A stretch of 38,966 bases of DNA from Candidatus Altimarinus sp. (lineage in GTDB: Bacteria; Patescibacteriota; Gracilibacteria; BD1-5; UBA6164). The position numbers were made by a program, and so were the translations under genes. The DNA lies in the NCBI GenBank assembly GCA_020724225.1, contig DYHI01000008.1:1-38966 (forward strand), given 5' to 3'. Within the stretch, counting starts at the first letter, position 1. The number at the start of each line of letters is the position of its first letter. The notes under the pieces were generated by a model. The model was not told where the DNA came from. It was given only the letters and a program-made list of their open reading frames with translations, and searched no databases. Below, piece after piece: positions 594 through 32,792 of this stretch.

Positions 594-2147
594 ATGAAAA
601 AAATTTATGTAATCTGAGTTGGTTGAATATGAGTTTCTGCAATAGCTAGGTATTATAATAAGATGTGATACCAAGTTTATTGAAGTGATAAATTTGATTC
701 AGAATTAATACATAATCTTAGAGATGAATGAATTGATATAATGATTTGAGAGGATGAAAAAAGATTAGAAGAATTTTTTAATAGTTATGTCATTCCTGCA
801 AAAGCAGGAATCTATAGTAAGGAGAAACGATTAGAAATAGGTAAAGATGCAGAATATTTTGAAAGTAATTATTCAAAAGAAAAAACTATAGGTTATGATG
901 AAAAGATAGATTCCTGATCAGGTCAGGAATGACATATTGTTATATATACTGAGGCAATTCCTCTAATGCAAAGTGAATTAAAAAAAGCAAATGAGCTTTG
1001 AATTAGAGCTATTTCCTACCCTGTTGCACTTTCAGAAATTGCGAATAGTAAAAAGTTAATTGCTATTTCATGAACTCATGGTAAATCAACTACCACAAGT
1101 TTGGTAAGTATTGTTTTAAAGAATTCTGAAATTTGAGTTAATAGTGTTGTTTGAAGTATTTTAAAAGAATTTTGAAATAAAAATGCATATTTTTCAGATA
1201 GTGATTACTTTGTAATTGAAGCTTGTGAGTATAAAAGAAGTTTCTTGAAATATAAACCATTTATTGCTATTATCACAAATATAGATTTAGATCATCTTGA
1301 TTATTACAAAGATTTAGATGATTATTTAAGTGCATTTCAAAGTTTTATAGAAAATGTTATTCCTTGATGATATGCAATATTAAATTGAAATTGTAGCAAT
1401 TCTATGAGACTTTTGTGATTAAGAGATGATGTAAACTATATAGTAGTTACGAACAATTCCTTCTCTGTCATTCCTGCGAAGGCAGGAATATATAAAAATG
1501 TTTTACCCCCTTTTGTAAAGGGGGCTAGGGGGTTTTTGTTCTCAATTCACGAATGACAAGTATTTTTATTTCCTCAAATTAATATGCAAATTCCTTGAGA
1601 ACATATACTTTTTGATGCAAAATTTGCTTTTACAGTTTGAAAAATATTAAATCTAGAAGATAATGAAATTATAAAAAGTCTAGAAAACTATAATTGAATC
1701 TGGAGAAGAAGTGAAATTGTTTGAACTACTTTAAATTGAAATATTTTGATGAGTGATTACTGACATCATCCAACAGAAATAGTACTAAATACAAAAGCAA
1801 TAAAAGAAAAGTATAGAGATAAAAAAATAATATGTATATTTCAACCACATCAGTATAATAGAACTCTGGAGCTACTTGAAGACTTCAAAAATTGTTTTAT
1901 TTATGTTGATAAATTGGTTATTCCTGATATATATGAATCAAGAGACACTGAAGAAGATAAAAGAAAGATAAATAGTGAAAAGTTAGTTAAATATATAAAT
2001 CATAGTGATAAGCTAGATTGAAAATGACTTGAAAATACTCTGAATTGGATTATTGAATATGATAAAAATAATCCAAATTCATCTGTAATTATTCTGCAAT
2101 GAGCATGAAATATAGATGATTTGAGATACAAAATAAAGACTGTTTAA
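594..2147 (+). CDS. murC: UDP-N-acetylmuramate--L-alanine ligase
   Basis: MurC adds L-Ala to UDP-MurNAc in the cytoplasm, using ATP, as the first amino acid step of the peptidoglycan stem peptide. The 517-aa product has the N-terminal Rossmann start ([17 protein letters not shown]), VIYTEAIP, the ATP loop [11 protein letters not shown] near residue 159, [12 protein letters not shown], and the C-terminal SDYGHHPTEI and FQPHQYNRT motifs. It is longer than the usual 450-480 aa because two repeat elements are inserted in frame, at about residues 65-114 and 291-322. Both begin with the peptide VIPAKAGIY and both sit in loops between family motifs. All catalytic motifs remain intact, so I expect a working enzyme. 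Translation follows pth by one base. The stop codon is inside a terminator hairpin. Confidence 0.95.
788..934. repeat. Fold-back repeat element inside murC, copy 1 (147 bp)
   Basis: The element has terminal inverted repeats TGTCATTCCTG and CAGGAATGACA, each the outer arm of a hairpin (left arm pair CCTGC/GCAGG, right arm pair CCTG/CAGG). Its length is a multiple of three, so the murC frame stays open across it; it adds about 49 residues between the N-terminal Rossmann domain and the VIYTEAIP strand. The 150-bp copy at 12865-13014 has the same architecture. This resembles a MITE that is tolerated in coding sequence, as known for Rickettsia palindromic elements. Confidence 0.8.
1466..1558. repeat. 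Fold-back repeat element inside murC, copy 2 (93 bp)
   Basis: Bounded by TGTCATTC and GAATGACA. It starts with a GTCATTCCTGCGAAGGCAGG hairpin and contains a second palindrome, CCCCCTTTTGTAAAGGGGG. It is 31 codons long and in frame, encoding VIPAKAGI and then a PPFVKGARG-type peptide. Its right end shares TTGTTCTCAAT-CACGA with the 5' part of rlmN on the other strand, so both genes received related DNA. Confidence 0.8.
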
Positions 2148-2165
2148 CAGTCTTTATTTTTATTT
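2133..2165. terminator. Hairpin terminator between murC and the convergent pilin gene
   Basis: Stem AAAGACTG/CAGTCTTT with a TTTAA loop, followed by a T-rich tail. The murC stop codon lies in the loop and the stop of the convergent gene just beyond the tail, so it can serve both directions. Confidence 0.8.
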
Positions 2166-4695
2166 AAGGTTTATCATTAGTTGAACATATGTATCTTGTT
2201 GTAGAATACATACAACTACCATCATTTATCAAAATCGTTCAATTATTTATAGCTGTAGTATTGAATCAAGTATTCCAAGAGTATAATCATAACCGACATC
2301 AAGCAGTATAATCTCAATTTGGTTCACTATATGTTGAATCTCTTACCCACCATTTTCATCATCATAATGCAGTCCAATTTGAACATCAAGATGCATGATG
2401 TGCAGGACTTCTCATTATACAAGTTGTATAATTTCATGCAACTAATGAATAAATTCAAGGTAAAGCATTAAAGTATGTAGCTCAATATAAGTTAAACATA
2501 GATAACCAATGATTTTTACTACGAGGAACAACCATATCCATACCTAAAGATTTACAAGAATTATTTGCAGAATAGCTTGCTGTAGATATTCAAGATGCAA
2601 CCGGATAATATGTATATCATCATCAATCTGTTTGCATATCACAATATACTGTAAATGGACTTATAGCTCAAGCTCAATCTGGGTCAATTGTATAGTTTCA
2701 ATTTGCAAATACGGTTCAATTCCATGGTGATGATGTTCATACTTTATAATCAGGATTTGAAGATATTAATAAATTATAACAACTAGTTGGATATGTAAGA
2801 GTACCAGAAGGATTTATAAATGTATAAGGAGTTGTTGTTCAATTTCATGACCATTGTAAAACACAACTACTTCAATTCCAATAATATCAAGTTTGGCATT
2901 TAAATTGACAAGTATTTACTGTAGGTGAAGCATTGTATCATGCAGATGTAGCACTTAAAGTTGTTCAATTAAGTGCATTTACTAGAGTATATGATGTAGT
3001 ATTATTGTGATACCAAGCATTTGCAGGTAAACTTGTACATGCTCAGTTAACATATTGTAAACAACTACTTCATCACCAATATGATGAAGTGTTACACTTA
3101 TATTGACAAGTATTTACTGTAGGTGAAGCATTGTATCATGCAGATGTAGCACTTAAAGTTGTTCAATTAAGTGCATTTACTAGAGTATATGATGTAGTAT
3201 TATTGTGATACCAAGCATTTGCAGGTAAACTTGTACATGCTCAGTTAACATATTGTAAACAACTACTTCAATTCCAATATGAACTACTATTACATACATA
3301 TCTACAACTATTACTAGCTCCAGTAATATTATAGGTAGTAGTTGTATCAATAGGAGTCCATGATGTTCAATTCCAAGTTTGAATATATCATGAAACAGTG
3401 TTCCGACTAGAATTAGCTGGTTTAGCATTACATACATAAACTCTACTATTTGGAACACAAGATGTTCAATTCCAAGTATAGTTTGTATTACAAGTAAATC
3501 TACATTCAGTTGTACTTGGTGATATATTAAAAACTCATACATTTGAAGGTATCCAAGTAGTTCAATTCCAATTTTGAGTTATATTTGAAACTGTATTCCA
3601 TGATGCATTTGTAGGTAATCATGTACAAACTACATTTTGAGTATTTGAAACACAAATAGATCAATTCCAAGTATATCAAGTTGCACATATAAATCTACAT
3701 GAATTTATTGATGATGTTATGTTATATTCTGTTACTGAATCATCAGCTGGAGTCCATGATGTTCAATTCCAAGTTTGAGTGTAGTTAGATACAGTGTTCC
3801 AAATTGTTCAAACTTCTGGTTTTGCTCAACATGTGTATGTTCTACTATTTATACATGATGTTCAATTCCATGTATAACCTATTTTACAATTCCATGTACA
3901 AGTTCAAGGAGTATCAGACCTAGTCCAATTTACATATGTAACTTCACTTAGAGCAGTGCTTATTCAGTTAATATCATTTATAGTTCATGCACATCAAGTT
4001 CATGTCTCATTTGAAACCACTGCTACACTAGATATTTTTAAAGATTCTTTGATTTTATTTGTAAGTACTAACATATCATTTGATGTTATTACTTCATTAT
4101 TTTTAAATCATAGGTTGAAATCTCATATCAAACTTCATGTAAAATTTATGTATCATTGTGATTTATATGTATTTAATTCTTGAATTGGAGTATTAGTTCA
4201 ACTTTGAGTTATTATTCATAGTTGATCTCAATAGTATGTTAAATATCTTTTACTATAATCAATTCAATCAGAATATGCTCAATTTAAAAAATATGCAGTT
4301 TTTGATTGATTTTCTAAAAATCACATTAATTGAAATCTTTTTAAATCTTTTGTTAGATAGTATGTATAATAAACTCAGTCTTTTGGATCTTTTCCCCTAT
4401 TTTTTCAACTTGCTCAATAATTTATCAAATCAAGTATAGATTCAGATAAATATCATTGATATGATACCAAGTTTCAATTTAATTGTATATCAACTTTATT
4501 GTCCGGAATTGGAAGTTTTAACTTTATTCTAAAAACTCCCATACTTTTTTTGATTTTAGAAAGTCATTCAAGTCTGCTTGCATCTCTTGAATCAGGTAAG
4601 TATGAAGTAAATGAAACAAATCATATTGTTCATAAAATTCATATAATAGTAGCTACAAACAATAATTCTACAAGTGTAAATGCTTTTTTATTCAT
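2164..4695 (-). CDS. Prepilin-like surface protein with Cys/Trp repeats and fibrinogen-like C-terminal domain
   Basis: 843 aa. The N-terminus MNKKAFTLVELLFVATIIGI is a class III prepilin signal (cleavage after Ala, Glu at mature position 5, hydrophobic helix), so the protein should be processed by prepilin peptidase and built into or attached to a type IV pilus-like fibre. Residues about 30-270 are a non-repetitive pilin-like body. Residues about 270-615 contain five Cys-rich segments of the type C-x3-C-x5-YxWNGxSC, with TWNGTSW between them in the first units. From about 635 a fibrinogen-related domain follows: YPTSCYNLL, YTIDPDGAG, FTVYCDMQTDGGGYT around residues 682-695, then CKSLGMDMVVP. 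The GGG of the hallmark is three TGA codons. The ATG is the only in-frame Met before an upstream stop; AAGGAAG lies 17 bases upstream. Likely an adhesin; the role is inferred, the domains are seen. Confidence 0.9.
2904..3072. repeat. Direct repeat in the pilin gene, copy A (169 bp)
   Basis: Identical over 169 bp to 3102-3270, with a period of 198 bp (66 codons). It encodes one Cys-rich repeat unit, residues about 542-598. Perfect identity at DNA level shows a very recent in-frame duplication. Confidence 0.95.
3102..3270. repeat. Direct repeat in the pilin gene, copy B (169 bp)
   Basis: Identical to 2904-3072. It encodes residues about 476-532. The sequences outside the two copies differ, so the ends of the duplicated block are clear. 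Confidence 0.95.
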
Positions 4696-7672: not shown

Positions 7673-7764
7673 TGTCATCCTGAATTTATTTCAGGATCTT
7701 TTATGCAGAAAATTATAGTAAAAACTTAAAATATCAAAGATGCTGAAACAAGTTCAGCATGACA
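7673..7764. repeat. Fold-back repeat element between groES and groEL
   Basis: It runs from TGTCATCCTG to GCATGACA with two internal hairpins (TCCTGAATTTATTTCAGGA on the left, TGCTGAAACAAGTTCAGCA on the right). It has the same build as the murC elements but different hairpin cores. In the transcript these hairpins lie between the two cistrons and could affect the groES to groEL ratio. A further half-copy (AGATTCCTGG...AGAATGATA) follows at about 7781-7809. Confidence 0.7.
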
Positions 7765-9535: not shown

Positions 9536-11122
9536 GTCTATCAATGTTTTTTCATCAATTAGTTCGGTATATTTTTCTTTATGTAATATTTTTTTAACAT
9601 TGAATAAATACTTGAATTTAAATAATATAGTTTGAGTACTATAATTGTTTTTATATGTTCAGTAAATAGCATATAAACTTACAGTAATCATAGGAAACAG
9701 AGATGCAAATGCTATTAATCAAAATCAATCAATTAATGGATCTCTTCAAGGTATATTTGTTGCTAATCAAACTCAAATTGCTGTTATAAGAGGAACACTA
9801 ACAGTTGAAGTTGTTACTCATCAACTATCATAAGCTATTGGCATTATGTATTTTGGTCAGACTATAGTTAAAATAATCGCTATTATATATCAAAACATTA
9901 TATAATACTGTATAGAATCTCATACTATTATTCTATGGGTTCAAATTGTTATTCAGATTGCAACTCATAGTGCTACAAAGATTCTAAGCATAACAGGGGT
10001 AATTTTTCAAAACGATATTTCACTAACTTTTTTTGCTATTGCAGTTAAACTAGGTTCTGCCATAGTTGTTGAAAATCCTATAGTAAATGCAAATACATAT
10101 ATCATTGTATTTTGATTCATTTTTGTGAGTTGATAAGCTATTTCTTTTCATATTTCAATTATTCAAACTTCCAATCATAATATAAAAGTATACAATCAAA
10201 TTATTACTAAAAATAATCACAAAAATATTTTTTTAAGCTCAATTAATGGGATTTTTTCTTTTAATATCAAATATTGAAAAACAAAAATTCATAATATAAG
10301 AGGTAGAATATTTCAGATTGTATTAATTATTCAACTTAATATATTTTTTAATTCAAAATTAAGAATTATCTCACTTCCTTTGCTTACTATTCAAGATATT
10401 TCTTTTTGTGTTCAAAATTCATAAATATATATACCATATAATTGTGCAAAAATCATTGGAGTTAATGAAGCTAGTGCTATAATTCAAAATCAATCAATTA
10501 TTGGGTTTCTTCAATTAATTTTACTTGCCAATCATATTCATAATGCTGCAACAAGAGGAACTGTTACATCAGCTGCAACTACTCATCATAAATCATAAGC
10601 AAGTCATATAATTTCCTTTGGTGTAAAATAAGTCAATAAAACTACCGCTATATATCAACCTATTATCAAATAGTGAATTGAAAATCCATAAATTATTCTC
10701 CAGACTCATAAAACTAAAGCTATTCAAACTGAAAAAGAAATAATATATCTCATTATATCAGGATCAATTCTTCATAAACTTATACTTCAAGCTTCATGTG
10801 CAACTACATTTAATGCTGGTTCTGCAATAGTTGTTCAAAATCAGATCAAAAAACTAAAAACATATAACCAAAATTTTCATTTTCTATTTATAAAACTGTC
10901 AGTAACTTTTTCTCAGATTGGAAATATTCAGTATTGTAATCATAATAAAAATGATCAAAGTCAAAACCATAAAATTAATATTCAAAAGATTATTGTTCCT
11001 AAATTTTCTGGGATTTTTTGAAAAATAAAAGCTTGAAAAAATATTATTACTCATAATATAGGAATAATATCAAATAAACTTCATCTCATTATTTTTAAAA
11101 AGTCCTTTAAAATATGAAACAT
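9530..11122 (-). CDS. DUF1538 family multi-span membrane protein
   Basis: 530 aa, built from two homologous halves. Each half ends in the family pattern: AYDLGGVVAADVTVPLVAAL with NGRNPIIDGFGIIALAS in the first, and AYDSGGVTTSTVSVPLITA with PGRDPLIDGFGLIAFAS in the second. Each half also has a GFGTTIAEPAL or GFSTTMAEPSL segment. About a dozen hydrophobic spans are visible. DUF1538 proteins are thought to be transport-related, but no substrate is established; I do not assign one. The start ATG (MFHILKDFLKIM) follows an AT-rich leader, and the stop lies within the bidirectional terminator shared with groEL. It is divergent from the pseudopilin gene at 11248. Confidence 0.85.
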
Positions 11123-13145: not shown

Positions 13146-13775
13146 ATGTTTTATTCAAAATCATGAACTTCTATAATTGAGGCTATGATAGCATTGTCTA
13201 TTGTGATGATTTGAATTACATGACTTTACAATATATATGATAGGTCACAGAAACTAGAAACAGCAACAGAAAATAGAATAAAAGCTATATCAATAGCTCG
13301 CGAGTGAATTGAAGTAATGCAAAATATAAGAGATACAAATTGGATACTTTTTTGAGCAGATACAAAAAATTGTTGGAATTCATTTAATTATGATGTAAAT
13401 TGTCTTTGAAGTACTGATCCAAATCACAAAATTGCTCCATGAAATTACAAAATCTATAAAGATGTTGATAATAGATGGAAGTTGGTTTTATGATCTTTAT
13501 GATTTGATTATACAGATATTTCATTGAGAAATGAATATAGAATTAAATTAGACTCTAATTGATTATATTCACAAAGTTGATGAATAGATTTTAATCCTAT
13601 ATTTACTAGAGTTTTAGAAATAAGTTATCCAGAGGATACAAATTCTGATTGAAATTTTGATGTAAATGATGAAAAGATACTTATTAAATCAATTGTATAT
13701 TGGAAAGATAATACAAAAGATACTCCTTATAATATAGTTCTTGAAAACATACTTACTAATTGGAAGAGAAATTAA
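13146..13775 (+). CDS. PilV-like minor pseudopilin
   Basis: 209 aa. The N-terminus has the prepilin-type site SG/TSIIEAMIALSIVMIGITGL with Glu at mature position 5 and a hydrophobic helix, followed by RIKAISIAREGIEVMQNIRD, a stretch typical of PilV/type II-secretion minor pilins. The C-terminal part is a mixed globular region with DTNSDGNFDVNDE, an acidic Asp-rich loop of the kind that binds calcium in some pseudopilins (inference). It would be processed by prepilin peptidase and initiate fibre assembly. Its neighbours are rlmN (divergent) and the 1386-aa gene (convergent, sharing the terminator), so it is transcribed alone. Confidence 0.87.
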
Positions 13776-13811
13776 AAAAAGAAATCTGGATTTATCCAGA
13801 TTTCTTTTTTT
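13774..13811. terminator. Bidirectional terminator
   Basis: Long perfect stem with arms at 13774-13791 and 13794-13811 (core GAAATCTGGAT/ATCCAGATTTC), flanked by A-run and T-run. It serves the PilV-like gene and the convergent 1386-aa gene, whose stop codon lies in the outer arm. Confidence 0.9.
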
Positions 13812-16800
13812 AGGCAACTTTTTGAAAATCTTCATCATTTATAGGTTCTTTTTTTAATGCATCTGCAATTGATCATCAGGTAAAGTTGATAACTCAAGTA
13901 ACTCATCTGTCTACACTGTGATCTTTTCAATCAAGTCAGTTATTTATATATCTCTCTAAAATTCTTTCAGCTTTTATATTTTTTCATTCTAATAATTGTT
14001 CAGCATTGATGTTGTTATTTCTAAACTCAGTTAAATCAATTCAAAATTTATCAAATATTTTTGAAAAATGACTTCAAGGCTTATTTATTGCTTCTATTGC
14101 ATTTTGGTTTCAAGCATGACTTGCTAATATTCAAGAAAGAAACTCTCTTAAATTTTGTTTTAAAATTGTTTTTTTTATGTTTATATCTTCATTTTTTTCG
14201 TTACTATAGTTTCTTTTTAGTAGTGTTAAAAACTCAGTTTCAACTTCTTCTAATGCAAAATGTCAAAACTTAGATTTATAAAATCATCATCATTGATTAT
14301 ATGATAGAGCTTCTTTTGTAAATTTAAATAAATCTAATCATGAAATTCATTTATCTACAAATGCATCTGACATATAATCATCAACAGTAAAATTTGCATC
14401 AGATTTGTTATAATTTCTGAATAAATCATAGTATTTTTTAAATACTGGATTAGAATCTTTTTCTAAGAATATTATTTTATTTGAAAGACTGTATTCATCA
14501 TTTTTTCAGTCATTTAACATGTACATTGACTTTGTTAGTATTTCTCAATAATCATCAAAAAAGCTTACAGTAGCATCAATTTGATCAGGTTCATTTTTTG
14601 ATCATTGATTATTAATTATTTTTTCTGCTCTAGATAGCATATTTTTATATTTTTCTTCTTTATCTCAGTACAAATCCTTAAATCTTTTTGATAGCTCTAA
14701 TACAGTTTGGTTAAATAAATCAATATCACTTGTTAGAGATATAAATCTAGCTGCTGGTATAATTCTTCATTCACTCATAGAGTTTTTAAATTCATCTGCC
14801 ATTTTTTGATTGAAGTTATATGCTATTCAAGAAAATAACATAACAAAAGGCAATTTATTCATTTTATGCATTGGTCATCATTTTCATATAATTCATTCAA
14901 ACCATCACATTGCATTTGGATATGTTCATCATTTCAATTCATCAATTCATCATGCAATTCTTCAATCTACAGTCCTTTTTCATTTAGAGTCTTCTAATCA
15001 TTTTTCTTTATCTTTTTTCATTCATCATTTCCAAGATCATTCAAACTCTTTATGTATCCTTGATCTTCTGTGTATATGTGTTTTTGGATCTCATCATGGT
15101 TTACATTGCAGTTTTAGTAGAGTATGAACTAATTCTTCTTCACTAAATTGTATTCATGCTTTTTTTGCTTTTTCTTCAGTTTCTCTATATAATTCATCTC
15201 ATATATGTCATCCTAAAGCTTCATACCACAAAAATTTTCATTTATATTTGTATAATTTCTTTGCATAAAGTGTTCAATAACTCTCCATCATAAAAAGTAA
15301 TCATGCTTCTTTTTTATGATTTGGAGTATTACTTGTAAGTAACCACTTTTCTATCATTCAAGTGGCAATTGGAGAATCAACTGATTTAAGTTTTCATATA
15401 TATTCATCCATATGCTTTTTTTCTCATTGTTCTACTCTTGTTCTTAAATCACTTTCTAATTCAATAGGTAAAAACTTACCAAAAACTGATAATGCTACTG
15501 CATTTGCATGCTCTTCATTTCACTCCTTTAAATAATGTTGAATAGAATCAAATCATATTTTTACTCATTTAATTATTTCTGCTACAGATTTGTTTGAAAA
15601 AAGCCATTTTGAAAAACTCCATTTTCTGTCGACTCAGTCAGGAAGTTTTCCTTTTTTCTTATCATTCGCTTCATTTAATGCTCTTGGTTCAAGTTTTTTT
15701 GATTTAATATAATCTTCTAAGAAACTTACACTTACTTCATAAGTTTCATTTTCTGTTTCAAATATTTCTCACTTTTTTTCTTTTTTTTCTTTTTCCGCAT
15801 AATCATCAGTTTTTACTTCTTTTTCATCAAGTATTTTTCAGAAGCTTATTTTAACTTTATTTCAGTTTACTGAGTGAATTTTAACTAATTCATCTTTTCC
15901 ATCTTTTGTAGCTACTAGATAATCATATGTAATTCATGTCTCACTTTCTTTTTTAACTATTTTATCATTTTTTACCTCAAAATCTCACCACATTTTTAAT
16001 TTTTCATTTTTTGTAGCAAGTTCTGGAATTTTTGAAAAATCTGTATTATTAGATATTCTTTTTATATCGTGATCTTTAAAAAGTGAATAAAATTCTTCAA
16101 AAGATCAAGTAGATAATTGTCAAATAGCATTTTCAACTGTTATTTTTTTTGTATTTTTATCAATTTCTGTTATAGTAAATATGTCTCATTCTAATTTGCT
16201 TCATGATTTGCTTGCTTTTATAGTCACTCATTCTTTTAGTCAAAAATCTTTTCAATTTGGATCTAATAAATCGATTTTTTCTAATAAGAAATTAAAATTA
16301 TATGATTCTAAATTAATTCATAATTTATTATCAATATCATCTAATTCATAAATTAAATTTGTAACTTCTTTATTTGCTTCAAGTTCATCTAATGTTTTTC
16401 AATGTGACATTTTATTTAATTCTTCTTTTATTTCATTTTTTCTTGCAGTTAAAAAATCAAAATCACTTTGATCTTTAAAATTAATATCATCTCATGATTC
16501 ATTAATTTCTCAAGAATTTATTTTTGATTTTATTTCTTTAGATGTAAAAAAATCTATTTTTGTTACTAAATTATTATTTATTATATAAAATAGTGATGCA
16601 TAATATCATGTTGAAATTTCTAATGTGCTAGAATTGTTATAACTATTTTCTTTTGAAGATCTATCACAAAAAGTAAATGTTCAATCATCTTGAAAAGATT
16701 TTATCTCTAAGTATGTGTAGCTTTCTTCCTTGCTTCTCTCATTATCTTTGGTAGATAATCTTATAATAATTCAATCATTTAGTAAAGTATCAATATTTTT

Positions 16801-17970
16801 ATAATCTTGACTTGAAATTTTTCTTTGAATTTGAGGGGTTGAGTGTATTTTTTCTTTAAATAGAGCTAAGTTATCAATACTATTTAGATAAGATTCTCTA
16901 AGTCACTCAAGTGATTTGTTGTAAGTGTCTACAAATGTTTTTGCTATACTAATATTTCATGCTAAACTATCTAATTGGTTTGAGTTTAGGTAATTTATTA
17001 TATCGCTTGATTTAACTATATAATCATTAAAATCAATATTTTCAATGATATAATTTATTTCATTTTCTGATTTATTTCAGTGTTTTATTAAATCATCTTT
17101 TATTTTATCTTTTCATTGAATTTCGCTATATATTCATGTTTTAATTAAATCTCATAGAGATAAAAATGGAACAAATTTTGATAAAAAAAATTTTTTATCA
17201 TCTTCTGAAAATATATCTTTTTCAAATAAATCAAAAACTATACTTAAATCAATTTTTTTAAGTGACTTTAATCTGTTAAATAATTCTCTTAACTCTTCAA
17301 TTGAATTATTATAAGAATTTACTCAAATTTTGTTTACAATTCTATTTTTTATTTCTTCTGAAATATCTACTCATGATAATATGTCTTTAATTTCTCTGTT
17401 TTTTATTTCTTCTGAAATATCTGTTCATGATAATATTTCTTTAATTTCTCTTTTTACATCTACTTTTTTTAATTTAACTTTACTTTTTCAAAAAAGGTTT
17501 ATTAACACTTCTTCTCTTTTTTTATCTATTCCTTTAATTAACTCATTAATTTCCCCTTCACTAAATAAATCTAATTGATTATTTAATTTTTTTATTTTAG
17601 TATCATCTAATTCATATTTACTTATATAATAATTTTGTAATTCATTTTTTCTATTTTCTATTTGAAATGATAATACTCTAATTTCATCACTAAACATACT
17701 AAATAATTCATCAATTTTTGTTGAATCTATTGAATCAATTAATTTTTCGTATTTATTTTTTTCTGTTTCACTTAAACTATCAAATAACTCTCATTTAAAG
17801 TCATTTGAAGTATATTTATTTCATTTGAATTTTGGATAAAATCAATCTTCTTTGATTTTATCCTTTGCTAATTTTTTTGTTTTTCTTTTAATTAAATCAT
17901 TAAAAGAGTTCTCTCTTTTTTGAAGTTCTTCTTTTGATTCATTTTGATTTGAAGAATTTATATCTGTCAT
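13810..17970 (-). CDS. Giant 1386-residue protein of unknown function
   Basis: I do not recognise this protein. It is one continuous UGA=Gly frame with no signal peptide and no clear membrane span. Residues 1-420 are charged and look helical or coiled-coil; an 18-residue unit (REIKEILSGTDISEEIKN and its near-copy) is repeated in tandem at about 17346-17453. A middle part (about 560-760) contains beta-rich segments with GVTIKASKSGSKL and ATKDGKDELVKIHSVNGN, which look like small barrel or SH3-like modules. From about 800 to 1200 a compact region has LPDGVDRKWSFSKWLFS, GLLFMMESYGTLY, CKPGGDPKTHIHRRSRIH and FEGIIGKGGPMHKMNKLP. The rest is helical and ends in INDEDFQKVA. It is monocistronic, starts with MTDINSSNQNESKEEL and ends in the bidirectional terminator. 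Possibly a large cytoplasmic or leaderless-secreted protein. Confidence 0.9.
17346..17453. repeat. Two tandem 54-bp units inside the 1386-aa gene
   Basis: The coded units REIKEILSGTDISEEIKN and REIKDILSGVDISEEIKN differ at two residues. The DNA copies are near-identical, showing a fairly recent in-frame duplication. Confidence 0.8.
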
Positions 17971-18118: not shown

Positions 18119-19438
18119 ATGATTTTCCTTTGAATACTTGTTGCAATTGTGATGTTTTCTGTAATTGTTATGATTCATGAATTTGGACATTTTAAAACTG
18201 CTCGTTTGTTTTGAGTAAAAGTTTATGAATTTTGACTTGGTATCCCCCCAAAAGCAAAAAAACTTTTTACAGATAAACTTTGAACTGAATATACTCTAAA
18301 CTGGTTACCTATTTGAGGGTTTGTAAGAATGAAATGAGAAAATCTAAATTATTTTCTTGTTTTTGATAAAAATAAAATACAGATTAAACAAGAAAATATA
18401 GAAAAAATTTTGAAATCTGATAAAAAAGTTTTTGATAAAGACTGAGATGAAATTAGTGAATTAAACAAAAAAGAGATATTAAAACAATTAAAAGAAAATA
18501 AAGATAATGATAATCTTGTAAATAAACCTTATTGGCAACAAAGTATAGTGATACTTGCTTGAGTATTTATGAACTTTTTATTAGCAATATTTATTTTTAC
18601 TATTCTTTTTACTGTTTGATTAAAACCGGTTTGAATAAATAGTGCAATTAAAACAGATTTAGATATAAAAGTCTTTCCTACTTTTGAACAAGCAGTAAAG
18701 GATTGACTATTAATACAAAAAGAGTGAATTATATTGTATCCTATGACCTGATCAATTGCATATAATGCTTGAATTAAAAATGAAGATTTACTCCAAAAAG
18801 TTAATTGAATAGTTGTTAATTCTCCAGATGATGTTAAAAATATTATTTGAGAAAATAGTAAAAAAGAATTGTTATTTGATATAAATAGATGATGAGAAAA
18901 TATTGGTATATATATAACCCCATCACAAGATTGAAAAATAGGATCTTATTTAGCTCCAAATATAGAGTACAATAAGGAATTTGAATATAAATATAATCTA
19001 TGAACTTCATTTGTAATAGCTTCAAAAGAAACATTTAATCAGTCATTACTCACACTTAAGGCATTAGGAATTTTTGTTCGTAAACTTGTAATTCCTACAA
19101 CAAAAGAAGAAAGAAGTGAAGCAATAAATAGTGTAAGTTGACCAGTATGAATAGTATCAATTGTTACAGATTCTATAAAATCTTGAATTACTATTTTATT
19201 TATATTATGAGCTATTATAAGTATAAGTTTATGAGTATTTAACCTACTTCCATTACCTGCTCTTGATTGATGAAGATTTGCTTTAATGTCAATAAATGAA
19301 CTAATTAGAAAAGTTACATGAAAAAAACTTATTTCACCACATATAGAATGAGTAATCCATCTAAGTTTTTTTGTAATTTTAATTTTTTTGAGTATAATTG
19401 TTACATACAACGATGTAATAAAGATAATTAATAAATAA
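18119..19438 (+). CDS. rseP: RseP-type site-2 intramembrane metalloprotease
   Basis: 439 aa, membrane-embedded zinc protease of the M50 family; relatives cut anti-sigma factors and leftover signal peptides within the membrane. The first span ends in VMIHEFGHFKTARLFGVKV (HExxH zinc site), followed by FGLGIPPKAKKL and LNWLPIGGFVRMKGE. A charged, lysine-rich stretch of about 60 residues precedes the second span. The PDZ-like region is around residues 190-300. The C-terminal FNLLPLPALDGGRF, containing the third zinc ligand Asp, is followed by a last span. All catalytic residues are present. It is followed 11 bases later by the HD hydrolase gene, so the two may be cotranscribed with tgt further on. 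The substrate is unknown here. Confidence 0.92.
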
Positions 19439-31506: not shown

Positions 31507-32103
31507 ATGAAAAATTTTACATTAAACATTTGAGTGACAAAAAATACAGTTTTTAGTGTAAATGAATTATCTCAAATTATAACTAATACTTCAGATAACT
31601 CATTAAGACAAAAGATAACAAATTATGTAAAAAATTGATATATAGAAAAAATTTATAGATGAATTTATTCTATTCCAAATATGAAAGTAAATCTTTTTGA
31701 ACTTTCAAATAAAATATATTCTCCCAGTTATATTTCATTTTTTTCAGCTTTATACCACTACTGAATAATTTTTCAAGTAAATCCATCAGAAATTGATATT
31801 GCATATAAGAAATCCCAATCTATAAAAATAGAAAATCTTTGAATAAATATTCATTTAAGATGTTTAAAACAAGATATTTTACTAAATCCTGAATGATTAA
31901 TTATAAATGATACCTACACTATTGCATCGCCTGAGAGAGCTTTTTTAGATACAATTTATTTATATAATAATATTTATTTTGATAATATTGAACCTCTAGA
32001 TACAAATAAAATAATAGAACTTATTCCAATCTATAAAAAAGATGCAATGATGAAGAAAAGGGTTATAAAATATTTTCCTAATTTAAATTTATGAATGCTA
32101 TAA
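31507..32103 (+). CDS. AbiEi-type antitoxin / transcriptional regulator
   Basis: 198 aa. The N-terminal winged helix (FSVNELSQIITN, SLRQKITNYVKNGYIEKIYRGIYSIP) and the following SPSYISFFSALYHYGI and ASPERAFLDTIYLY are the marks of the AbiEi antitoxin family. AbiEi represses its own operon and counters the AbiEii nucleotidyltransferase in a type IV toxin-antitoxin system that can protect against phage. The 3' end overlaps the toxin start by 13 bases, as usual for this module. It contains several TGA Gly codons, so the pair is adapted to the recoded genome rather than newly arrived from a standard-code host. Confidence 0.85.
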
Positions 32104-32792
32104 TAGCAAAATTAGATAGACAAACTCATAGGAGTATTATGCTGAATATTTTGTTAAAAATTTCTCAAGATCCAATATTGGCTAGAAACCTTGTTTTTAA
32201 ATGATGAACTGCTCTATACTTTATTTATAAGCTACCTAGATTTTCTACTGACTTAGACTTTGATTTAGTTGATACAAAATTAGAAAATGATATTTTAAAA
32301 AAAATAAATAATATATTGAAACAATATTGAGATGTAAAAGATTTAAGGATTAAAAAATATACTATTTTTGCATTGCTTTCGTATTGAGATATAGACCATA
32401 ATATAAAAATTGAGATAAATCGTAGATGAGTTATGTGAAATTTTGGTTTTAAAAATTTTATGTGAATACAACTAAATATAATGAATTTAGAAGATATGTT
32501 TGCAAATAAGCTTATTGCTTTAACAACAAGAAATAGATTGGCAAATAGAGACATTTTTGATATTCATTTTATGTTAAGTAATTCATTTAAAATAAATGAA
32601 AAACTTATTTTGAAAGAAACTTGAAAGAACTTACAGGAATATGCGAAATATTGTATAGATTTTTTACAAAAATTACCTAAAAATCACTCTATTTTGGATT
32701 GATTATGAGAAGTTTTGGATGAAAAACAAAAGGTCTTTGTAAAAAATAGCTTAATTAATGAAACTATATTTCTATTGCATAGTTTGATTTAG
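32091..32792 (+). CDS. AbiEii-type nucleotidyltransferase toxin
   Basis: 233 aa. VFKGGTALYFIYKLPRFSTD followed by LDFDLV is the GG-T-AL and D-x-D core of the AbiEii/DUF1814 nucleotidyltransferase family (about residues 37-60). The later segment MNLEDMFANKLIALTTRNRLANRD contains the family's catalytic-region Lys and the RD-x-FDI motif. Length is somewhat short for AbiEii (about 250-300) but all core motifs are present. Such toxins add nucleotides to tRNA 3' ends or other targets and stop growth. The start ATG lies within the antitoxin gene. Confidence 0.87.

What the first reader, a model, noticed from the sequence alone, without database searches (positions are those of the whole stretch)
13810..17970. 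1386-residue protein with no recognisable family
It is the largest gene of the window (4.2 kb in a small-genome lineage), intact, monocistronic and with its own terminator. It combines a helical N-terminus with an 18-residue tandem repeat, small beta modules and a conserved-looking Gly/His/Lys/Trp-rich central region (about residues 800-1000). A large, maintained gene of unknown function may be lineage-specific biology, such as host interaction.
Basis: partly seen in the sequence, partly recalled or inferred. Interest (0 to 1): 0.7.

Follow-up and report, generated by a model that had tools for sequence, protein, structure and literature searches.

The report
Giant protein linked to bacterial secretion
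A very large protein in a tiny, probably host-dependent bacterium turns out to belong to a family found across its whole class, often encoded right beside a membrane protein that looks like the missing channel part of the class's secretion machine, so it may help these bacteria pass material to other cells.

Summary
The gene is real. With TGA read as Gly, window 13810-17970 (-) is an intact 1386-residue, single-copy, monocistronic gene; no Pfam, NCBIfam, PHROGs, PADLOC or PDB family reached a credible score. It is not an orphan. Full-length relatives occur in most genomes of two families of its order, and profile-profile comparison ties them to 1.1-2.0-kilo-residue proteins elsewhere: together 256 of 353 genomes of the class, with no hit outside the class in a 379-genome phylum sample.

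AlphaFold gives a helical N-terminus, three SH3-like barrels and a conserved helical core (residues about 786-1385) without a convincing PDB match. No membrane span.

The main clue is the neighbour. In 17 families of the class, including one genus of the window's own order, the gene sits beside a polytopic membrane protein whose relatives in other Patescibacteria lie just upstream of prgI-virB4. It is the best candidate for the VirB6 that a 2025 survey found absent from Gracilibacteria. The window genome has it on another contig, plus a virB4.

Best reading: a class-specific cytoplasmic partner of a dispersed type IV secretion system, adaptor or substrate. The link is by gene context; the biochemical role is inferred.

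The parts
13810..17970 (-). the 1386-residue gene (called FAM in this report), table 25
   Evidence: family
16783..17934 (-). helical N-terminal region, residues about 13-396
   Evidence: AlphaFold model m05128bfe5a94, mean pLDDT 84.5
17345..17455 (-). two copies of a 54-bp (18-residue) repeat, specific to this genome among those aligned
   Evidence: TRF; missing from nearest relative
16546..16788 (-). SH3-like module 1, residues about 395-475
   Evidence: strands 402-408, 416-426, 431-436, 452-456, 469-475 in the model
16048..16233 (-). SH3-like module 2, residues about 580-641
   Evidence: matches SH3-like barrels at Z 5-6.3
15682..15981 (-). beta module 3, residues about 664-763
   Evidence: model maac8686f8e15
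13813..15615 (-). all-helical C-terminal region, residues about 786-1385; most conserved at about 800-1060 (in 51 aligned sequences E944, G991, G1022 are invariant)
13772..13813 (.). bidirectional terminator-like hairpin shared with the convergent prepilin-like gene
18119..19438 (+). divergent neighbour, RseP-like site-2 protease (name recalled from sequence); adjacent in 19 of 28 loci of the window's family
13146..13775 (+). convergent neighbour, prepilin-like (N-terminal motif, recalled); adjacent in 24 of 28 loci of the window's family

Best explanation
FAM is a cytoplasmic protein, specific to this class of Patescibacteria, that works with a dispersed type IV secretion system (T4SS). SHOWN by computation: one class-wide family with a conserved helical core and SH3-like modules; no membrane span; in 17 families of the class the gene stands next to, and mostly directly downstream of, a polytopic membrane gene (MEM); MEM relatives in other classes stand just upstream of prgI-virB4; the window genome carries MEM and a VirB4. 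INFERRED: MEM is the VirB6-type channel protein of the class, and FAM binds its cytoplasmic side or tail through the SH3-like modules and helical core, as an inner-face adaptor/scaffold that organises or feeds the channel. I put the adaptor reading above the substrate reading because FAM is nearly always single-copy, is kept across the class and has a conserved core.
For: Orthology across the class: the profile of the window's order against the profile of families f25-f32 scores 71.1 (probability 89, 438 columns, colinear) and against 26 diverse members 62.6; the reversed profiles, 12 column permutations and two reversed self-comparisons score at most 28.2. In the window's order FAM is adjacent to MEM, divergently, in 5 of the 12 f3 loci read, all five of one genus (G022, G023, G024, G026, G027; searches identify the neighbour as MEM; short spurious ORFs intervene in three, so the strict index count gives 2). 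Elsewhere MEM lies on the same strand directly upstream in 58 of 84 genomes for which both places were printed, 25 on different contigs, 1 at 39 kb (57 by script, G258 added by hand because its two matches overlap by 19 bases). In 10 of 10 loci read in full (L140-L149) the strand is the same, and in 9 of 10 the gap is 153 bp or less. The pair persists in different surroundings: thrS-recF, ATP synthase, and the divergent f3 setting. MEM: N-terminal hydrophobic stretch plus 5-7 further spans, found in 316 of 353 class genomes and in 72 of 106 phylum genomes, 65 of them outside the class. Of 20 out-of-class MEM loci read, 14 hold a PrgI-cluster gene and 11 a VirB4-cluster gene nearby, representatives confirmed by Pfam: PrgI 39.8 bits, P-loop_TraG 94.7, T4SS_pilin 46.4, and one MEM with TrbL/VirB6 at E 5e-4, below cut-off. 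Quinonero-Coronel 2025 (PMC12102498; abstract, two sections and passages seen) reports VirB6 homologues scarce or absent in Microgenomatia and Gracilibacteria, 'suggesting extreme sequence divergence'. VirB4 is present in 12 of 12 class genomes tested, the window's included.
Against: In the window's own family FAM is not next to MEM (0 of 28 loci), nor is it next to virB4 in any of 9 virB4 loci of the class. MEM occurs without detectable FAM in family f5 (MEM 44 of 49, FAM 0 of 49) and f2 (2 of 2 MEM, 0 FAM), so the pair is not obligatory or FAM is there beyond detection. TrbL/VirB6 (PF04610) does not match MEM inside the class (0 of 11 genomes over cut-off; no Pfam hit in 4 MEM). Conserved adjacency can outlive function: thrS and recF are also conserved neighbours. 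No interaction was tested. No FAM relative was found among the ORFs of 20 T4SS loci of other classes.
Confidence: 0.42

Rival explanations
1. FAM is a protein substrate (effector) of the T4SS: made in the cytoplasm beside the channel gene, recognised by its barrels or N-terminus, and passed to the host or prey cell, where the helical core acts.
For: Soluble, very large, encoded directly after the channel candidate. The best structural matches of the barrels are the TraI translocation-signal region, Z 6.0-6.3 over 63-71 residues, and the window protein alone has a sub-threshold TraI_2B hit at the same place (E 0.073). Members outside f1/f3 share a short N-terminal motif, [RKNW]-hydrophobic-hydrophobic-[YF]: 12 of 20 against 7 of 199 soluble-start background proteins (the pattern was chosen after seeing the sequences).
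Against: The TraI matches are tied (within about 1 Z) with Spindlin, MscS and similar barrels and lie below the level that means much. TraI_2B hits 1 of 29 members, below cut-off. One conserved, nearly always single-copy effector across a class would be unusual. The N-terminal motif is missing in the window's family.
Confidence: 0.22
2. FAM is a class-specific cytoplasmic housekeeping factor, for example a nucleic-acid or ribosome-associated scaffold with KOW/Tudor-like barrels, and its neighbours reflect conserved gene order only.
For: The barrels also resemble NusG/Spt5 KOW and Tudor domains. Neighbours across the class include ssb, rpsR, thrS, recF, ATP synthase, RseP, Tgt and RlmN (names recalled). 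Kept in 184 of 236 genomes at least 90% complete and at most 5% contaminated.
Against: The FAM-MEM pair is kept while the other neighbours change. FAM evolves fast (about 26-38% identity within its own family), unusual for a housekeeping factor.
Confidence: 0.22
3. FAM belongs to type IV pilus biology: its convergent neighbour in the window's family is a prepilin.
For: Prepilin adjacent in 24 of 28 loci of the window's family.
Against: Convergent, not co-directional; 0 of 12 in f3, and a different neighbour in other families.
Confidence: 0.05
4. FAM is a surface protein that touches the host.
For: Giant proteins of the related Vampirococcus are inferred to be membrane-located (PMC8080830, passages seen).
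Against: No signal or membrane span by hydropathy in 12 of 13 family members scanned (the exception, L061, is a start-codon artefact by its length) and in 10 of 10 f25-f32 members; conserved core without secreted-domain hits.
Confidence: 0.04

Closest known systems
Patescibacterial T4SS with VirB6/TrbL, PrgI (VirB3), VirB4 and T4SS pilins (MPF-FATA type; PMC12102498)
   Same: The gene's usual neighbour MEM has relatives that sit in exactly these clusters in other classes
   Different: FAM itself has no counterpart in the 20 other-class loci read; in this class MEM-FAM and virB4 are on separate loci
TraI relaxase 2B/2B-like translocation-signal region (PDB 4l0j, 5n8o, 9f0x)
   Same: Small barrel with similar topology, Z about 6, rmsd 2.6-3.5 A over 63-71 residues
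   Different: No relaxase or helicase domain; sequence match below cut-off in 1 of 29 members; other barrels score almost as high
KOW/Tudor/SH3-like barrels (NusG, Spt5, Spindlin, MscS beta domain)
   Same: Barrel fold of modules 2 and 3
   Different: Z 4-5.6 only; no sequence family match
(d)CMP kinase (TIGR00017, PF02224)
   Same: Best sequence hit of the window protein, E 3.5e-4 over residues 145-215
   Different: 20.3 bits against a cut-off of 135.6, partial, in a helical/repeat stretch; PF02224 in 1 of 29 relatives: chance

Membership tests
FAM superfamily (defined here) | Full-length colinear relatives in the order | tested here: met
   52 of 77 genomes by single sequence; 68 of 77 by profile
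FAM superfamily (defined here) | Window's order and the rest of the class share one profile above controls | tested here: met
   Scores 62.6 and 71.1; controls at most 28.2
T4SS VirB6/TrbL (for the neighbour MEM) | Polytopic membrane protein | tested here: met
   Several predicted spans in 11 of 11 MEM scanned (hydropathy only)
T4SS VirB6/TrbL (for the neighbour MEM) | Match to PF04610 above cut-off | tested here: not met
   0 of 11 class genomes over cut-off; out of class 1 of 4 MEM at E 5e-4, below cut-off. So MEM is called VirB6-like by context, not a member
T4SS VirB6/TrbL (for the neighbour MEM) | Relatives encoded with prgI/virB4 | tested here: met
   14 of 20 and 11 of 20 out-of-class loci; inside the class not met, 0 of 9 virB4 loci
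T4SS component (for FAM) | Physical or functional dependence on the T4SS | not testable with these tools
   Only gene neighbourhood and co-occurrence are available
TraI_2B / T4SS translocation-signal domain | Sequence match to PF18340 above cut-off | tested here: not met
   13.4 bits, cut-off 26.7; 1 of 29 members
TraI_2B / T4SS translocation-signal domain | Fold match standing clear of unrelated barrels | tested here: inconclusive
   Z 6.0-6.3 against 5.2-5.6 for Spindlin
(d)CMP kinase | Full-length match above cut-off | tested here: not met
   20.3 bits, cut-off 135.55
Known anti-phage or phage families | PADLOC or PHROGs match | tested here: not met
   0 families at E 0.01; no relative in viral contigs

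The most novel reading that the evidence does not exclude
The class has taken its type IV secretion machine apart on the chromosome and rebuilt it around a class-specific giant cytoplasmic protein: MEM is the supposedly absent VirB6, and FAM is its dedicated partner, perhaps a loading platform or a large translocated effector used on host or prey cells.
Probability: 0.35. Interest if true: 0.82.

Novelty: new variant of a known kind. Interest (0 to 1): 0.6.

Why it matters
Gracilibacteria and relatives are hardly cultivable and probably live on other cells; how they do it is unknown. A T4SS is the best-supported contact machine of Patescibacteria, but its channel protein had been reported absent in this class. 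The work here names a testable candidate for that channel and a large partner protein kept across the class and unknown outside it, and gives the loci in which both lie together.

Tried and rejected
Library searches with the window protein: Pfam, NCBIfam, PDB, PHROGs and PADLOC gave no credible family. The cmk hit was rejected as chance: partial, far below cut-off, PF02224 in 1 of 29 relatives. Pfam on 29 members gave no family in more than 2. PDB by profile: A1 nothing; A4 only coiled-coil type hits, E 0.0018 and weaker; A5 nothing credible.

Foldseek against PDB and viral models: no match at E 0.001. One viral entry at E 0.002 (rank 1, no name) was not followed.

Exact-pattern search of genome contigs with the single sequence found one relative, which gives the only organism name: a Candidatus Gracilibacteria MAG, the same place as G033, a same-genus genome. 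The A4 pattern scan of viral contigs failed; A1 found none.

Not in print, as far as searched: paper searches list no paper that names this family or a VirB6 for Gracilibacteria; only open-licence PMC is held. Papers: PMC12102498 abstract, sections 12 and 14, passages; PMC11452946, PMC8080830, PMC6744442, PMC9132574 passages only; others search listing only.

Counting choices: the 84-genome adjacency table holds only genomes whose FAM and MEM places were both printed in the cut lists, one pair per genome; the gap limit was 7 kb between matched spans, because matches often miss FAM's N-terminus. G319, adjacent, was left out since its place was not printed. The union 256 of 353 is 187 plus 68 in f1/f3 plus G215 (G289 is in both). 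A2 omitted L092 (contig end); A3 omitted short or cut rows (L007, L016, L027, L082, L092). Row 1 of A1 lacks the start Met (coordinate choice). One search was a failed first synteny run, repeated. One search left out code-25 loci.

Ka/Ks was not computed (only codon-position differences). Co-evolution of FAM and MEM trees was not tested.

Full report
What is there. The window is AT-rich (GC 0.18-0.30) and reads well only with TGA=Gly. The nearest named relative of the gene lies in a Candidatus Gracilibacteria MAG of the same genus (same place as G033). The reported gene, window:13810-17970(-), is an intact 1386-residue frame, the longest of the window, single copy, flanked by a divergent RseP-like gene and a convergent prepilin-like gene (names recalled from the sequences), with a hairpin at 13772-13813 that serves both convergent ends.

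Not an orphan. With the single sequence, 52 of 77 genomes of the order match, mostly full length at about 28-39% identity (57% in the nearest genome) and mostly once per genome. With a 29-row profile, 68 of 77 match, plus weak single-stretch hits in two other families of the class, G215 and G289. The 1265-residue G289 protein in turn finds 162 of 353 class genomes. A profile of 26 such proteins finds 187 of 353, none of them in the window's order. The two sets are joined by profile-profile comparison: 71.1 (438 columns) and 62.6 (245 columns), colinear from the barrels through the core, against at most 28.2 in reversed and permuted controls. Union: 256 of 353 genomes; 184 of 236 of those at least 90% complete and at most 5% contaminated. 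In a phylum sample all 31 hits of 379 genomes lie in the class. Families without a hit include f5 (0 of 49) and f2 (0 of 2).

Anatomy. Two AlphaFold models from 47- and 51-row alignments are mostly confident (mean pLDDT 84.5 and 85.9): helical residues 13-396 with a poor stretch at 172-204 that holds the short repeat; barrels at about 395-475, 580-641 and 664-763; helices from about 786 to the end. The core at 800-1060 is the most conserved part, with E944, G991 and G1022 invariant in 51 sequences. Hydropathy shows no membrane span. The barrels match SH3-like folds. TraI 2B-like regions come first at Z 6.0-6.3, tied with Spindlin and others. The helical core has no convincing match, but it could not be folded alone.

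Neighbours. In the window's family the setting is RseP and prepilin (adjacent in 19 and 24 of 28 loci). RseP also lies a few genes from FAM in two of the f15 loci read (L100, L132), which supports orthology. In genus g33 of family f3, the same order, FAM's divergent neighbour is a large membrane protein, MEM. In fifteen further families MEM lies directly upstream on the same strand: 58 of 84 genomes with both places printed, 25 split over contigs, 1 apart; f21 adds another. The pair survives in different surroundings (thrS-recF, ATP synthase). In one genome (G257) there are two MEM-FAM pairs. Upstream of MEM are usually a short two-span protein and one or two soluble, poorly conserved proteins.

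What MEM is. It is found in 316 of 353 class genomes, the window's own included (contig 44), and in 65 genomes outside the class. I read 20 of those outside loci: 14 carry a PrgI-cluster gene and 11 a VirB4-cluster gene close by, with representatives confirmed by Pfam. One outside MEM touches TrbL/VirB6 at E 5e-4, below its cut-off; inside the class PF04610 finds nothing over its cut-off. A 2025 survey (PMC12102498, passages) found VirB6 scarce or absent in Microgenomatia and Gracilibacteria and suspected extreme divergence, and found Gracilibacteria VirB3 and T4CP homologues mostly away from virB4. The class's virB4 loci read here (9 of 9) have no MEM beside virB4, which fits a dispersed system. 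So MEM is VirB6-like by context; membership by profile is not met.

How it most likely works. Given a soluble giant protein made from the same transcript as a channel candidate (10 of 10 loci read on the same strand, 9 of 10 with gaps of 153 bp or less), the simplest idea is that FAM acts at the cytoplasmic face of that channel. Whether it is a platform or the cargo is open. Near-universal presence, mostly single copy, and a conserved core favour a platform; the TraI-like barrels (not significant) and a short N-terminal motif outside f1/f3 (12 of 20 against 7 of 199; post hoc) would favour cargo. A housekeeping factor remains possible.

Limits. In the window's family itself FAM and MEM are apart (0 of 28), so the link there rests on orthology. 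FAM is undetected in f5 although MEM is present (44 of 49). No interaction, localisation or expression was tested. Taxon letters such as f1 and f25 are handles of the tool; names of neighbouring genes without a Pfam call are recalled.

Noticed in passing
L152:8144-10456 (G000:C44, the window's own genome): The own-genome copy of MEM is split into two ORFs (331 and 437 aa) by one in-frame TAA; G060 also shows one TAA in MEM. Real loss or assembly error is not known.
   Followed up: partly
window 789-812, 1467-1490, 7673-7699; L152:2304-2330, 3400-3426, 10388-10411: A short near-palindromic element is scattered in this genome and read in frame inside MurC-like, ArgS-like, methyltransferase-like and MEM genes as VIPAKAGI or CHPELDSGS-like peptides; none in 39 other loci scanned.
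   Followed up: partly
window 2164-4695: 843-residue protein with prepilin-like start and Cys/Trp-rich modules, two of them in a 198-bp tandem repeat (2863-3282, 93% matches).
   Followed up: no
window 31507-32792: Two overlapping genes resemble an AbiEi/AbiEii toxin-antitoxin pair (recalled from sequence).
   Followed up: no
L131-L150, N-terminal 45 residues of FAM: Short N-terminal motif [RKNW]-hydrophobic-hydrophobic-[YF] in 12 of 20 FAM starts and in 2 of 19 other MEM-cassette proteins (L230, L227); absent in the window's family.
   Followed up: partly
L212-L220: virB4 stands without prgI or a MEM gene in all nine loci of the class that were read.
   Followed up: partly
L196, L198, L202, L203, L206 and others: In other Patescibacteria classes virB4 appears split, a 220-310-aa N-terminal ORF before a 590-660-aa ATPase ORF, just downstream of prgI.
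   Followed up: no
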